Part shown: positions 1-2,325 of the stretch, in pieces
Numbering within the stretch: the first letter of the stretch is position 1
Layout of the letters: each line of letters starts with the position of its first letter
Assembly: GCF_000735695.2 (NCBI RefSeq)
Contig: NZ_JASZ02000029.1
Span: 1 to 36,481, forward strand
Reading direction: 5' to 3'
Source: Kaistella haifensis DSM 19056
Lineage (GTDB): Bacteria; Bacteroidota; Bacteroidia; Flavobacteriales; Weeksellaceae
Length of the DNA stretch: 36,481 nt
Notes under the pieces: generated by a model
Databases searched by the model: none
The model's input: the letters and a program-made list of their open reading frames with translations, nothing else
What the model was told of the DNA's origin: nothing
Translations under genes and position numbers: made by a program

Positions 1-106
1 CTAAGGTAAGAAATAATGGATTTGGAATATTGAATTTTTCACGCCGACTCCTCCTCGTTAGCGGCTAAAAACAACTTCGTTTTCGAGTAGGGGAATTTCT
101 GCCAAC
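1..106 (-). other. Start of a second putative cassette (partial)
   Basis: Read on the minus strand, this stretch follows the attC-like palindrome and begins with GTTGGCAGAA, the same GTTGG core that opens the resistance cassette. No convincing open reading frame is visible before the window ends; one short GTG-started frame near position 43 stops within 14 codons. An 11-bp palindrome, TTAGC-G-GCTAA, sits at 58-68. It is probably the leader of the next cassette. This is inference from the repeat arrangement; the gene itself would lie outside the window. Confidence 0.4.
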
Positions 107-235
107 GGTTACGTATTGGCGATGGTGGGGCATTTGAAAAACGTCAGCCCAACATTTGCACTAATGCCCGATAGAAGCACAAATGTTGAATTTATAACTA
201 TCAGCCCCACTATTGCCAATACGATGTTGGTGGCT
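101..235 (-). other. attC-like recombination site (large imperfect palindrome)
   Basis: A 135-bp imperfect inverted repeat lies directly behind the aminoglycoside phosphotransferase stop. Outer 20-nt arms at 112-131 and 204-223 pair with two mismatches. An inner pair of perfect 9-nt arms lies at 150-158 and 180-188. The edges are GCCAAC (101-106, + strand) and GTTGGTGGC (226-234, + strand). On the cassette strand it therefore runs from GCCACCAAC to GTTGGC, the organisation and size range of integron attC sites (RYYYAAC...GTTRRRY), although the cores fit that consensus only partly. The 9 bases at 226-234 are the exact reverse complement of 1054-1062 at the other end of the cassette. A MITE or plain cruciform is the main alternative. 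Confidence 0.6.
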
Positions 236-244
236 GGGCTTCTT

Positions 245-1033
245 TCAAAAGAACTCGTCTAATAATATATAAAACTCTATTTTATTTTTGTTTGGCTTAT
301 CAAGTCCATATACCTTGTAAAATATGTCAACCATTTCTGGTCTAAAATTATCTCGTATGTTTCTAACAGCAAGTGCAATATCTTGATATTTATCTGTTAT
401 ACCTCCATTGCCAATGTCTATAAAACCACTTAAGTTATGATTGTCAAAAATTAAGTTGTCAAAACAGTAATCTCCGTGTGTAAACACTAATTCATAGTCT
501 GATGGCTTTATGCTTAATAATTTCACAAATAGTTCTTCGGGGCTGTAAGTTTGATTTTCGGGTTGTAAGTCTGTAAAATCAATTAACCCACTATCTAAAT
601 TAAATCTTGCTTTTGAAATTTTCAAGTCAAGGTGTTGAACCAACGCAGTATTGTCGATTTTCAAAGAATGAAGTTTTTTCAATGATATTGCATATTGCTT
701 AATAATTTCTTCAGTTTCTATTTTATCAAAATAATATTCAAGAGTTTTTCCTTGCAGTTCCGTCATACATAACAATTCAAAGTCGCTTAATTGTTCATAA
801 AAAATAATCTTAGGAACTGGAATTTTTCCGTCAAGCCATGAATAATTTTGATAATCGTATTTGAGGTTTACATTATGGTTACTATAAATTTGTTTTTTGA
901 GAATAAAACTCTTTGATTCATCTGTCGTAACCCTGAACAATTCAGCATTTGTTGAACCACCTGAAATTTGTGTGGTAGTATAATTTCCAAAATATTTGTC
1001 AAGTTGATTTTTTACGTCTTTACTGATGTCCAT
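245..1033 (-). CDS. Aminoglycoside 3'-O-phosphotransferase (APH(3') family)
   Basis: Transfers the gamma-phosphate of ATP to a hydroxyl of 2-deoxystreptamine aminoglycosides of the kanamycin/neomycin type; cytoplasmic. The 262-aa length matches the family (about 264). Visible hallmarks are the nucleotide-binding Lys near residue 46, the catalytic loop HGDxCxxN at 186-193 (Asp188, Asn193), the metal-binding motif GFIDIG with Asp206 followed by DKYQDIAL, and the C-terminal LLDEFF that closes the aminoglycoside pocket in APH(3') enzymes. The ATG at 1033 is the natural start. It lies about 27 nt downstream of the predicted start point of the promoter at 1066-1095. The gene sits alone between two GTTGGTGGC cores in inverted orientation, like a one-gene integron cassette. 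The exact APH(3') subclass and substrate range cannot be read from sequence alone. Confidence 0.9.
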   Translation of the reverse strand: MDISKDVKNQLDKYFGNYTTTQISGGSTNAELFRVTTDESKSFILKKQIYSNHNVNLKYDYQNYSWLDGKIPVPKIIFYEQLSDFELLCMTELQGKTLEYYFDKIETEEIIKQYAISLKKLHSLKIDNTALVQHLDLKISKARFNLDSGLIDFTDLQPENQTYSPEELFVKLLSIKPSDYELVFTHGDYCFDNLIFDNHNLSGFIDIGNGGITDKYQDIALAVRNIRDNFRPEMVDIFYKVYGLDKPNKNKIEFYILLDEFF

Positions 1034-1053
1034 TTGCTGTGTCTTTTAGCCTT

Positions 1054-1062
1054 GCCACCAAC
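1054..1062 (-). other. attI-like / cassette junction core GTTGGTGGC
   Basis: On the minus strand GTTGGTGGC lies between the promoter at 1066-1095 and the phosphotransferase start. It is the exact reverse complement of the edge of the palindrome at 226-234. If recombination occurs after the first G, as in integrons, an excised circular cassette would carry GCCACCAAC...GTTGGTGGC, a perfectly paired site. This makes it the likely platform insertion point. The full extent of any attI site cannot be defined here. Confidence 0.5.
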
Positions 1063-1065
1063 ACT

Positions 1066-1095
1066 CAAATATACGCAGATTTTTGAAAGTACCAA
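1066..1095 (-). promoter_or_regulatory. Cassette promoter (Pc-like), TTG-N19-TATATTTG
   Basis: On the minus strand, TTG at 1095-1093 is followed by exactly 19 nt and TATATTTG at 1073-1066. This fits the Bacteroidota housekeeping sigma consensus TTG-N17-23-TAnnTTTG. Transcription would begin at about 1060, inside the GTTGGTGGC core, and read into the phosphotransferase and anything inserted behind it. Confidence 0.65.
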
Positions 1096-1133
1096 GTATT
1101 TTTTAAAATAAATTAAATATATCGCGTAATGTA

Positions 1134-1163
1134 TTGTTAAATAGTGAATTATATGTAAATTTG
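1134..1163 (+). promoter_or_regulatory. Promoter of the recombinase gene, TTG-N19-TAAATTTG
   Basis: TTG at 1134-1136, 19 nt, then TAAATTTG at 1156-1163 matches the Bacteroidota promoter consensus. The predicted start near 1169 leaves a leader of about 83 nt before the TTG start codon at 1252. It is divergent from the promoter at 1066-1095, with about 40 bp between the two -33 elements. Confidence 0.6.
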
Positions 1164-1251
1164 TATTGCGTATTATGAATTGTTTTACCATAATTCCGCC
1201 TAATTTATTGAGTTTTTAAGAAATTTTAACATATACAAAAAACGAAGCGTT

Positions 1252-2325
1252 TTGAATGATTTTGCTGATAAAAGATATAGTTTTTCCGTCGGCACCCACT
1301 ATGGATCTAAAGTGATTTGGGTAAGTTTTGATAAGGATAAAGAGCTTATTAGCCACCTCAGATCGCAAACCAAAGCTCGCTGGTCGTCGACCCAGAAAAA
1401 ATGGTACGTAGCTGATACCAGATCTCACCGCGCAATTTTCGGTCTTCCGCAAAAAATAACAGGTGAAGCTGTTTTAGCAAAAATCCATGTTATCAACTTA
1501 CCAGAATTCACGCGTTTTCAGGAGCATCTGCTATTGAAAGGCTATAGTGCAAATACGGTAAGAACTTACAGTACAGAGTTTGCCCAGCTACTATCTGTAT
1601 TGAAGGGAAATCCTGTGCAGGAGCTTACGCCCGAACGTTTGCGTTCTTATTTCCTCTACTGCCACGAAAAACTAAAACTCTCGGAAAGCGAAATCCACAG
1701 CCGCATGAATGCCGTAAAGTTTTATTTTGAGCAAGTACTCCACCGCCAAAAAATGTTTTTCGACATTCCACGCCCAAAGAAAAAACTGCTCCTTCCCAAA
1801 ATGCTTAGCAAAGCTGAAATTAAAAAAATAATTGCGGCCCCAGAAAATCCCAAACATTCCCTTGTTCTGAAAGTATGTTACGGCATGGGTCTTCGTGTGA
1901 GCGAAGTGGTAGCGCTAAAACTTTCCGATATCGATAGTACGGAAATGCTGGTGCGCATCGAACAAGGGAAAGGTAAAAAAGACCGCATCGCAGTACTTCC
2001 GGAGAGTCTATTGCCTGAACTGCGGGAATATTATCTGAACTACCGCCCAAAGGTTTACCTTTTCGAGGGGCAGGAAGGCGGGGCGTACTCTGTACGGTCT
2101 GCACAGGCTGTTTTTAAAAAGGCGATGGAAAAGGCGGGTATTCGCAAGAAAGTTGGTATTCACGGCTTGCGCCACAGTTTTGCCACGCACTTATTGGAAA
2201 CGGGTACCGATATTCGGTTTATTCAGGAGCTTTTGGGGCATAATTCCATTAAGACTACCCAAATCTACACCCATGTGACAGATCTGTCAAAATCTAAGAT
2301 AAAAAGTCCGCTGGATTCTTTATAG
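1252..2325 (+). CDS. Tyrosine recombinase / integrase (integron-integrase-like layout)
   Basis: Site-specific recombinase of the phage-integrase fold. An N-terminal arm (about 1-75, with RWSSTQKKWY at 43-52) is followed by a SAM-like core-binding domain (about 84-175) and a catalytic domain (about 183-345). The catalytic set is complete: Arg215 in GLRVSE, Lys242 in GKGKKDR, His304-x-x-Arg307 in HGLRHSFATHLL, His330 in LLGH and nucleophile Tyr339 in IYTHV. It ends in KSPLDSL, close to the SPLDxL tail typical of IntI integrases. However, the region between Lys242 and His304 is short and lacks the extra IntI-specific helix insertion. No ATG is available; the reading frame is open from 1204 and TTG at 1252 is the best start. 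The gene is divergent from the phosphotransferase cassette. A XerC/D role in dimer resolution is less likely because of the N-terminal arm and the context. Confidence 0.9.
   Translation: MNDFADKRYSFSVGTHYGSKVIWVSFDKDKELISHLRSQTKARWSSTQKKWYVADTRSHRAIFGLPQKITGEAVLAKIHVINLPEFTRFQEHLLLKGYSANTVRTYSTEFAQLLSVLKGNPVQELTPERLRSYFLYCHEKLKLSESEIHSRMNAVKFYFEQVLHRQKMFFDIPRPKKKLLLPKMLSKAEIKKIIAAPENPKHSLVLKVCYGMGLRVSEVVALKLSDIDSTEMLVRIEQGKGKKDRIAVLPESLLPELREYYLNYRPKVYLFEGQEGGAYSVRSAQAVFKKAMEKAGIRKKVGIHGLRHSFATHLLETGTDIRFIQELLGHNSIKTTQIYTHVTDLSKSKIKSPLDSL

What the first reader, a model, noticed from the sequence alone, without database searches (positions are those of the whole stretch)
1..2325. Integron-like platform in a flavobacterium: recombinase, divergent promoters, attI-like core, resistance cassette and attC-like palindrome
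Seen: a tyrosine recombinase gene is divergent from an aph(3')-type gene; promoters face both ways; GTTGGTGGC stands in front of the resistance gene; a 135-bp imperfect palindrome bounded by GCCACCAAC and GTTGGC follows it; a second GTTGG core opens the next segment. This reproduces the integron layout (intI, Pc, attI, cassette, attC) with a different recombinase lineage and non-consensus cores. Established: integrons carry promoterless cassettes, often for aminoglycoside resistance. Inferred: the site is active and others of its kind exist.
Basis: partly seen in the sequence, partly recalled or inferred. Interest (0 to 1): 0.92.

Follow-up and report, generated by a model that had tools for sequence, protein, structure and literature searches.

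The report
Hidden integron-like system in Bacteroidota
A resistance gene beside a DNA-rearranging enzyme turns out to be one swappable cassette of an integron-like gene-collecting system found in many Bacteroidota, run (probably) by an enzyme that lacks the part thought to define integrons.

Summary
The window has a divergent tyrosine recombinase, an attI-like site overlapping an outward promoter box, a 956-bp aph(3')-IVb cassette and an attC-like hairpin. The same cassette, cut at the two cores, sits in Riemerella and Empedobacter plasmids. The attI motif stands 132-232 nt upstream of 29 of 29 readable related recombinase genes, but 0 of 3 in Riemerella, whose single motif lies elsewhere. Cassette starts pair with their own attC arm over 15 nt, not with the next one (131 cassettes). 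The bottom strand folds better in 144 of 146 modelled circles. Of 247 Bacteroidota genomes 127 hold such sites (79 with three or more), 79 the recombinase, 71 both. The recombinase lacks the IntI insertion (55-59 against 96-98 residues). So it works like an integron but fails the field's defining test. It would explain the published, unexplained insertion of this gene into R. anatipestifer, whose marker genes lie in an array of at least 29 sites. That this recombinase is the enzyme is inferred.

The parts
1252..2325 (+). tyrosine recombinase, 357 aa, without the IntI-specific insertion; R215, K240, H304, R307, H330, Y339 invariant or conserved in the 16-row alignment
   Evidence: catalytic roles assigned from recalled family knowledge
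1059..1080 (-). attI-like site ATCTGCGTATATTTGAGTG|TTG; crossover inferred between 1062 (G) and 1061 (T)
   Evidence: motif in 29 of 29 readable related loci, sequences differ beyond it
1066..1095 (-). Pc-like promoter: TTG (1095-1093), 19 nt, TATATTTG (1073-1066)
   Evidence: sequence; Bacteroidota promoter consensus recalled; no expression data
106..1061 (-). gene cassette, 956 bp from G|TT to G|TT
   Evidence: same total as 27 + 789 + 140 bp of PMC13148043 (789 = 262 codons plus stop)
245..1033 (-). aph(3')-type aminoglycoside phosphotransferase, 262 aa; taken to be the gene called aph(3')-IVb in R. anatipestifer
   Evidence: 99.8% DNA identity with the plasmid of strain RCAD0416 named in PMC13148043
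226..240 (-). R'' arm of attC; 13 of 14 positions outside position 11 complementary to the cassette's own start (1062-1048)
104..228 (-). attC-like core hairpin (AAC to GTT)
   Evidence: R1 match E 4.6e-19 (this site is one of the 49 the model was built from)
92..106 (-). R' arm = start of the next cassette (GTTGGCAGAAATTCC), A at position 11
1..105 (-). start of a second cassette, cut by the contig end
   Evidence: contig G000:C29 is the window itself

Best explanation
The segment is the proximal end of an integron-like cassette system widespread in Bacteroidota. SHOWN from sequence: (1) an attI-like site next to the recombinase, 5' of it (divergent) in most Weeksellaceae loci read, or 3' of it (codirectional) in Flavobacterium, Pedobacter, Chitinophaga, Algoriphagus and others; (2) arrays of mostly one-gene cassettes in one direction, each ending in an attC-like hairpin; (3) cassette boundaries at G|TT; (4) a 15-nt R arm in which each cassette's start pairs with its own attC, position 11 being A in the start against C in the arm in most cassettes (A.C on the top strand, T.G on the bottom); (5) the bottom strand folds better. 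INFERRED: the recombinase joins the folded bottom strand of the attC of a free (circular or transforming) cassette to double-stranded attI, or to another attC, at G|TT. The Pc-like promoter ends at the crossover, so the newest cassette is transcribed first. The enzyme does this without the IntI-specific domain. Strand choice rests at least partly on A.C/T.G positions in the R arm and inner stem. In Riemerella attI plus array lie about 0.5 Mb from the recombinase gene, so the enzyme would act in trans.
For: Near-identical cassette in three contexts with edges at the cores. attI motif at 29 of 29 readable recombinase loci of the first set; L043 and L045 share the attI but have different first cassettes. 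In the codirectional type the first attC predicts the cassette start (>=12 of 14 matches) in 18 of 23 loci, 15 of them 77-211 nt after the recombinase stop. Own start against R'': 4.9 of 7, next cassette 2.7, random 2.6, p 7e-19; the profile drops to background at position 16. Repeated in 10 loci not used before: 16 cassettes, own 7.5 of 10, next 3.6, p 5e-4. Covariation score 0.689 against 0.145 shuffled and 0.04-0.09 slid. Bottom strand better in 144 of 146 modelled circles and 135 of 146 integrated sites. ORFs along the array 181, against 11, none 12. attC in 71 of 79 genomes with the recombinase against 56 of 168 without, p 5e-18. Listed sites within 50 kb of a recombinase: 35 of 47, 2.1 expected. 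R. anatipestifer: one attI motif, then an array of at least 29 sites whose cassettes include a cation-efflux and a RelE-like (Gp49) protein, fitting the cdf and relE markers of PMC13148043.
Against: No recombination assay. attC without a detected recombinase: 12 of 46 relatives (>=3 sites) and 56 of 168 phylum genomes; recombinase with fewer than 3 or no attC: 4 of 54 and 8 of 79. The three Riemerella recombinase loci (65% identical) have no attI motif or attC beside them. attI motif copies also occur away from recombinases (56 of 100 genomes, up to 8 each); of 21 copies in 18 fetched regions only 6 have an attC within 6 kb downstream. The motif overlaps a promoter box, so part of its conservation may be promoter, and my search pattern fixed part of it. 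The scanner selects palindromes, so pairing and covariation are partly built in; arm positions 5-15 are not. Cassettes in the tests are not fully independent. R'' pairs less well in some (R. anatipestifer: 16 of 25 with >=12 of 14); L244 and L250 are weak out of sample.
Confidence: 0.84

Rival explanations
1. The cassettes are real, but another enzyme (a host Xer recombinase or another tyrosine recombinase) moves them; this recombinase is a neighbour.
For: attC without a detected relative (12 of 46 and 56 of 168 genomes); R. anatipestifer keeps the array about 0.5 Mb from it, and none of three Riemerella recombinase loci has attI or attC beside it.
Against: The attI-like site stands beside this recombinase, in two layouts, across many families; genome-level and local co-occurrence. 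In R. anatipestifer the other two tyrosine recombinases found at E <= 1e-20 are only 35% and 29% identical.
Confidence: 0.12
2. It is an ordinary integron whose IntI is merely divergent or has lost the extra domain.
For: Second-best PDB match by sequence and by fold is VchIntIA; C-terminal SPLD shared; P0001 misses by 0.1 bit the cut-off of NF040815, named 'site-specific tyrosine recombinase/integron integrase' (219.9 of 220), the name a plasmid-borne relative bears; PMC8138268 says the insertion is not fully conserved in its integron-like subgroup (passage).
Against: 55-59 residues against 96-98 in four IntI; TIGR02249 200 bits against cut-off 265; 0 of 100 genomes over the cut-off (no positive control); separate clades, 40 rows 99/95 and IntI 100/100, though the forks between them are weaker; the inner stem shows no single extrahelical base in the window fold or consensus.
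Confidence: 0.1
3. A transposon, MITE or rolling-circle (IS91/ISCR) unit carries the resistance gene.
For: Same aph on plasmids without the recombinase in the fetched stretches; IS91-like elements sit at attC sites in one array.
Against: No constant terminal repeat: ends differ between cassettes and pair only within a cassette; beyond GTT the two junctions do not match; tandem arrays beside attI.
Confidence: 0.03
4. The palindromes are terminators or structured RNAs, and gene order changes by homologous recombination between them.
For: They lie 3' of genes and are strong hairpins.
Against: No Rfam match (5 sources at gathering, L088 at E <= 0.1); the start-arm pairing spans the gene and is not explained by a terminator; published insertion occurred without flanking homology (PMC13148043).
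Confidence: 0.03

Closest known systems
Sedentary chromosomal integron (Vibrio type) and mobile integrons
   Same: attI, outward promoter, one-gene cassettes in one direction, attC hairpins, bottom-strand bias, cassette start pairing with its own attC arm, arrays without integrase
   Different: recombinase lacks the IntI-specific domain; extra N-terminal part of about 85 residues; 15-nt R arm with position 11 mispaired (IntI sites: 9-11 complementary nt, PMC2727003 passage); A.C/T.G positions instead of single extrahelical bases in the inner stem; recombinase codirectional with the array in the lineages outside Weeksellaceae that could be read, or far away in Riemerella
Archaeal integrons (PMC9668308)
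   Same: integron logic outside the usual hosts
   Different: those keep the IntI-specific additional domain, called defining there (passages)
XerA / Xer recombinases
   Same: best sequence and fold match (5hxy); no IntI insertion
   Different: arrays, attI and attC instead of a dif site; XerC and XerD cut-offs far off, the archaeal XerA/integron-integrase model missed by 0.1 bit
aph(3')-IVb insertion in Riemerella anatipestifer (PMC13148043)
   Same: same gene; 27 + 789 + 140 = 956 bp moved without homology; authors saw an attC-like fold
   Different: authors left the mechanism open; no array, attI or recombinase named in the abstract, passages and section 11 that I read

Membership tests
Integron (IntI-defined) | IntI with the additional domain near patch III | tested here: not met
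   (55-59 against 96-98 residues in 4 IntI)
Integron (IntI-defined) | integron-integrase model TIGR02249 over cut-off | tested here: not met
   200 of 265 bits; 0 of 100 genomes over cut-off (stretches scored apart, no positive control)
Integron (IntI-defined) | recombinase inside the IntI clade | tested here: not met
   65-row tree, midpoint root, only 4 IntI, weak support for some forks between the clades
Integron (IntI-defined) | attI beside the recombinase gene | tested here: met
   29 of 29 divergent-type loci; 15 of 23 codirectional loci within 211 nt by prediction from the attC arm; not in 3 Riemerella loci
Integron (IntI-defined) | attC hairpins with conserved structure, variable sequence | tested here: met
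   with the selection caveat
Integron (IntI-defined) | extrahelical bases in the L stem | tested here: not met
   arms align without a single-base bulge in the window fold and consensus; A.C at fixed places. A minority of R arms seem to have one extra base
Integron (IntI-defined) | bottom-strand preference | tested here: inconclusive
   folding energies favour the bottom strand; preference of the enzyme untested
Integron (IntI-defined) | cassettes: one gene, one direction, circle logic | tested here: met
Integron (IntI-defined) | Pc promoter driving cassettes | tested here: inconclusive
   motif only
Integron (IntI-defined) | recombinase-dependent excision and integration | not testable with these tools
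   integration of this cassette published, enzyme unknown
Xer chromosome-dimer recombinase | XerC/XerD model over cut-off | tested here: not met
   187-188 bits against 330-335
Transposon / MITE | constant terminal repeats with target duplication | tested here: not met
   ends differ between cassettes; junctions share only GTT and a few conserved positions

The most novel reading that the evidence does not exclude
Bacteroidota have their own integron lineage, built from a Xer-like recombinase without the IntI domain, that reads folded bottom-strand attC by another code (15-nt R arm mispaired at position 11, A.C/T.G marks) and can work with enzyme and array far apart. It is the platform that assembled tet(X), estT, OXA, lnu and aph cassettes seen on a Riemerella plasmid, and current integron finders overlook it because they key on the IntI domain.
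Probability: 0.6. Interest if true: 0.96.

Novelty: new variant of a known kind. Interest (0 to 1): 0.92.

Why it matters
IntI-type integrons are few in Bacteroidetes: IntegronFinder 2.0 reports earlier In0 elements and one complete integron, in Salinibacter (PMC9024848, passages), though reviews list the phylum among carriers (PMC8618304, passage). If about half of a phylum sample carries cassette sites of another integron lineage (127 of 247 genomes; 79 with three or more), a main route of gene capture there has been missed. It gives a testable mechanism for the unexplained homology-free insertion in Riemerella and for a resistance cluster with tet(X), OXA and lnu genes. It also tests whether the IntI-specific domain and extrahelical bases are truly needed for folded single-strand recombination.

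Tried and rejected
Similarity of the window palindrome alone underestimates the family: one copy in its own genome against 14 by covariance model. The first upstream alignment and scan mixed strands and were redone oriented. The circle fold was off by one base and was redone. The first out-of-sample run let ties choose orientation and gave 7 of 15 bottom-strand better; redone with the model's strand: 14 of 16. MITE, terminator and canonical-IntI readings: see rivals. Rfam: nothing. Parts left out: one search scanned 60 of the 80 loci (attC in 21, all sites 3' of the recombinase); one search left out L114, one of those 21. My note says A at position 11 in 24 of 25 loci; one search shows 22 of 23.

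Literature (PMC open library only; no bioRxiv, few subscription journals): the rows listed by searches (15-30 rows each, often of many more) show no paper on Bacteroidota cassette arrays with a non-IntI recombinase. The lnu(H) and RATA papers cited by PMC13148043 were not read.
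Full report
WHAT IS THERE. The window is contig G000:C29. On the minus strand, reading away from the recombinase: a promoter-like TTG-19 nt-TATATTTG, the core G|TTGGTGGC (crossover inferred between 1062 and 1061), aph (245-1033), an attC-like hairpin (92-240), and the first 105 bases of a next cassette. On the plus strand the recombinase (1252-2325) points away. aph passes the APH(3') cut-off (235.7 of 205 bits).

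THE CASSETTE MOVES AS A UNIT. Window 104-1062 is 99.8% identical to R. anatipestifer plasmid pRCAD0416RA-1 and 104-1063 is 99.6% identical to Empedobacter stercoris pLPY03, with different flanks. The hairpin alone (90%) lies by another gene on an Emticicia plasmid. In pRCAD0416RA-1 the scanner finds five attC sites among aph, a phosphotransferase, estT, tet(X), a class D beta-lactamase, an HTH/RelE pair and lnu(I). In PMC13148043 (abstract, passages and section 11 read) natural transformation of ATCC 11845 inserted 27 bp + CDS + 140 bp without homology: with a 789-bp CDS that is 956 bp, the length of the predicted cassette. The one-base shift between its parts is within the ambiguity of the repeated core.

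attI. I fetched 30 related recombinase loci (54-100% identical to P0001), one too short to read. All 29 readable ones have TGCGTATATTTGANNG|TTR-like sequence 132-232 nt before the matched start. The consensus is strong, but my pattern fixed part of it. L043 and L045 share this region, then differ at the core. Three Riemerella loci (65% identical) have no such motif within 600 nt upstream. Among 60 of the 80 named loci, 21 have attC sites, all of them 3' of the recombinase. There I predicted the first cassette's start from the R'' arm of the first attC: 18 of 23 loci gave >=12 of 14 matches, 15 of these 77-211 nt after the stop codon; A at position 11 in 22 of 23 (L097 and L105 had no attC, L114 was not tested; L096, L098, L107, L112, L133 scored lower). 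The Weeksellaceae motif is not exclusive to recombinases: 56 of 100 relatives have it, some up to 8 times, against 6 hits of the reversed pattern. Of 21 copies in 18 fetched regions, 6 have an attC within 6 kb downstream; L228 has four.

attC. My scanner ([CT]AAC, complementary 28-nt arms, GTT[AG]) found 145 palindromes in 24 sequences and none in one shuffle of each. Orientation by spacer length agrees with the stretch's majority in 133 of 145, not in 10, undecided in 2. For 131 cassettes the R'' arm matches the cassette's own start at 0.64-1.0 per position for positions 1-10 and 0.74-0.85 for 12-15, never at 11 (A in all starts, C in R'' in 118), and at 0.15 at position 16; against the next cassette the score equals that of random cassettes (2.7 and 2.6 of 7; own 4.9). 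This is integron logic: the pairing is complete only in the free cassette. On 49 dereplicated sites 20 pairs have 97.2% standard pairs and 264 double changes (86 shuffled), score 0.689 against 0.145; scanner selection inflates this. In 209 sites the inner stem has 382 A.C but 9 C.A and 123 G.T/T.G mispairs; in 58 dereplicated ones 96, 3 and 44. So wobbles fall mostly on the bottom strand. Of 146 distinct cassettes, modelled circles fold better as bottom strand in 144, integrated sites in 135, and the bottom-strand circle beats the integrated site in 127. Ten loci from other families, not used before: 16 cassettes in six loci, own 7.5 against next 3.6 of 10 (p 5e-4), A at 11 in 15, bottom better in 14 (an earlier run with wrong orientation is told in Tried and rejected; L250 fits poorly; L243, L248, L249, L252 gave no testable cassette).

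RECOMBINASE. Aligned with IntI1 and three phage-borne IntI, the 40-row Bacteroidota clade has 55-56 residues (59 in one) where IntI have 96-98; phmmer splits VchIntIA at the same place. TIGR02249 gives 200 bits, cut-off 265; NF040815 (XerA/integron integrase) 219.9 of 220. None of 100 relatives, and none of 14 control genomes, passes TIGR02249 (no positive control). The tree puts 40 rows, all Bacteroidota, together (99/95), apart from the four IntI (100/100), both layouts inside; some forks between are weakly supported and the root is a midpoint. The model (pLDDT 83, pTM 0.50) matches XerA, then VchIntIA, at TM 0.4. Papers treat the missing domain as defining and use it for detection (PMC9668308 passages; PMC2426708 passages). 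PMC8138268 notes that the insertion is not fully conserved in its integron-like subgroup (passage).

DISTRIBUTION. Of 100 relatives, 54 have the recombinase (E <= 1e-45) and 70 at least one attC match (E <= 0.01; at most 35 candidates scored per genome). With >=3 attC the table is 50 both, 4 recombinase only, 12 attC only, 34 neither (p 2e-12); other genera of the family 13/1/3/8 (p 0.001); other families 7/3/3/26 (p 7e-4); within the genus all 36 have attC, so the test is empty there. Among the attC rows listed for ten one-contig genomes, 35 of 47 lie within 50 kb of a recombinase (2.1 expected; G012 0 of 1, G016 0 of 4). In the phylum sample attC is in 127 of 247 (79 with three or more, at most 14 scored), the recombinase in 79, both in 71; of 55 listed attC rows on contigs with a listed recombinase, 37 lie within 30 kb. 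Cassette ORFs run along the array in 181 cases, against in 11, none of >=50 aa in 12. Pfam on 20 cassette proteins: cation efflux, RelA/SpoT, Gp49/RelE-like, esterases, TPR, DUFs and others; 7 without a family.

RIEMERELLA. Genome G124 (2,164,087 bp; a 751-bp stretch 100% identical to the R. anatipestifer plasmid; I take it to be R. anatipestifer, and recall this length for ATCC 11845) has one attI motif at 2,148,485, then at least 29 attC sites reaching about 34 kb past the contig start. All 25 cassettes tested have A at position 11; 16 have >=12 of 14 arm matches. A 65% identical recombinase lies at about 510-511 kb, with no attC in the 20 kb fetched around it. Cassettes here hold a cation-efflux protein and the RelE/HTH pair, fitting the cdf, relE and hthR markers around the published insertion. 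So that insertion most likely entered a chromosomal cassette array; the paper reports no mobile element there.

VERDICT. Works like an integron: strongly supported. Member of the IntI-defined family: no, the defining domain was tested and is absent. Enzyme: the recombinase is the best candidate, unproven.

Noticed in passing
L083:1488-3951 and 4448-6911 (G006); related recombinases in G000 C2 and C62: Two copies of a 2.46-kb element with a tyrosine recombinase (Phage_integrase) and an IS91-like Y2_Tnp transposase; its left end overlaps an attC-like site, so rolling-circle elements may use cassette hairpins as targets.
   Followed up: partly
L069:8000-14585 (pRCAD0416RA-1): Plasmid array of resistance cassettes (aph, APH, estT, tet(X), OXA, HTH/RelE, lnu(I)) with five attC; no tyrosine recombinase among the features listed for the fetched stretch.
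   Followed up: partly
G124 2148485 and about 510 kb; L228: attI plus array and the recombinase gene are far apart on the chromosome (split integron); L228 in G034 also has an attI motif plus four attC away from the recombinase.
   Followed up: partly
window 3351-3402 and 4363-4414: 52-nt direct repeat (98%) of an ORF's 3' end flanking a 1-kb stretch with a zeta-toxin-like kinase ORF (3576-4163, minus).
   Followed up: no
window 2487-2591: 11-nt-period repeats forming an imperfect palindrome after the recombinase; similar sequence beside the L041 and L042 recombinases.
   Followed up: no
L146, L148, L152, L156, L157, L160: Relatives in Spirochaetota and Bacillota, several with part of the N-terminal region; the two scanned (L156, L157) showed no sites of the Bacteroidota type, the others were not scanned.
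   Followed up: no
L070:2183-2970: The aph cassette of Empedobacter plasmid pLPY03 is annotated as two separate phosphotransferase CDSs.
   Followed up: no
L040 (G024:C12): A 95% identical recombinase whose frame holds one stop codon, so a likely decayed copy beside an intact-looking attI.
   Followed up: no
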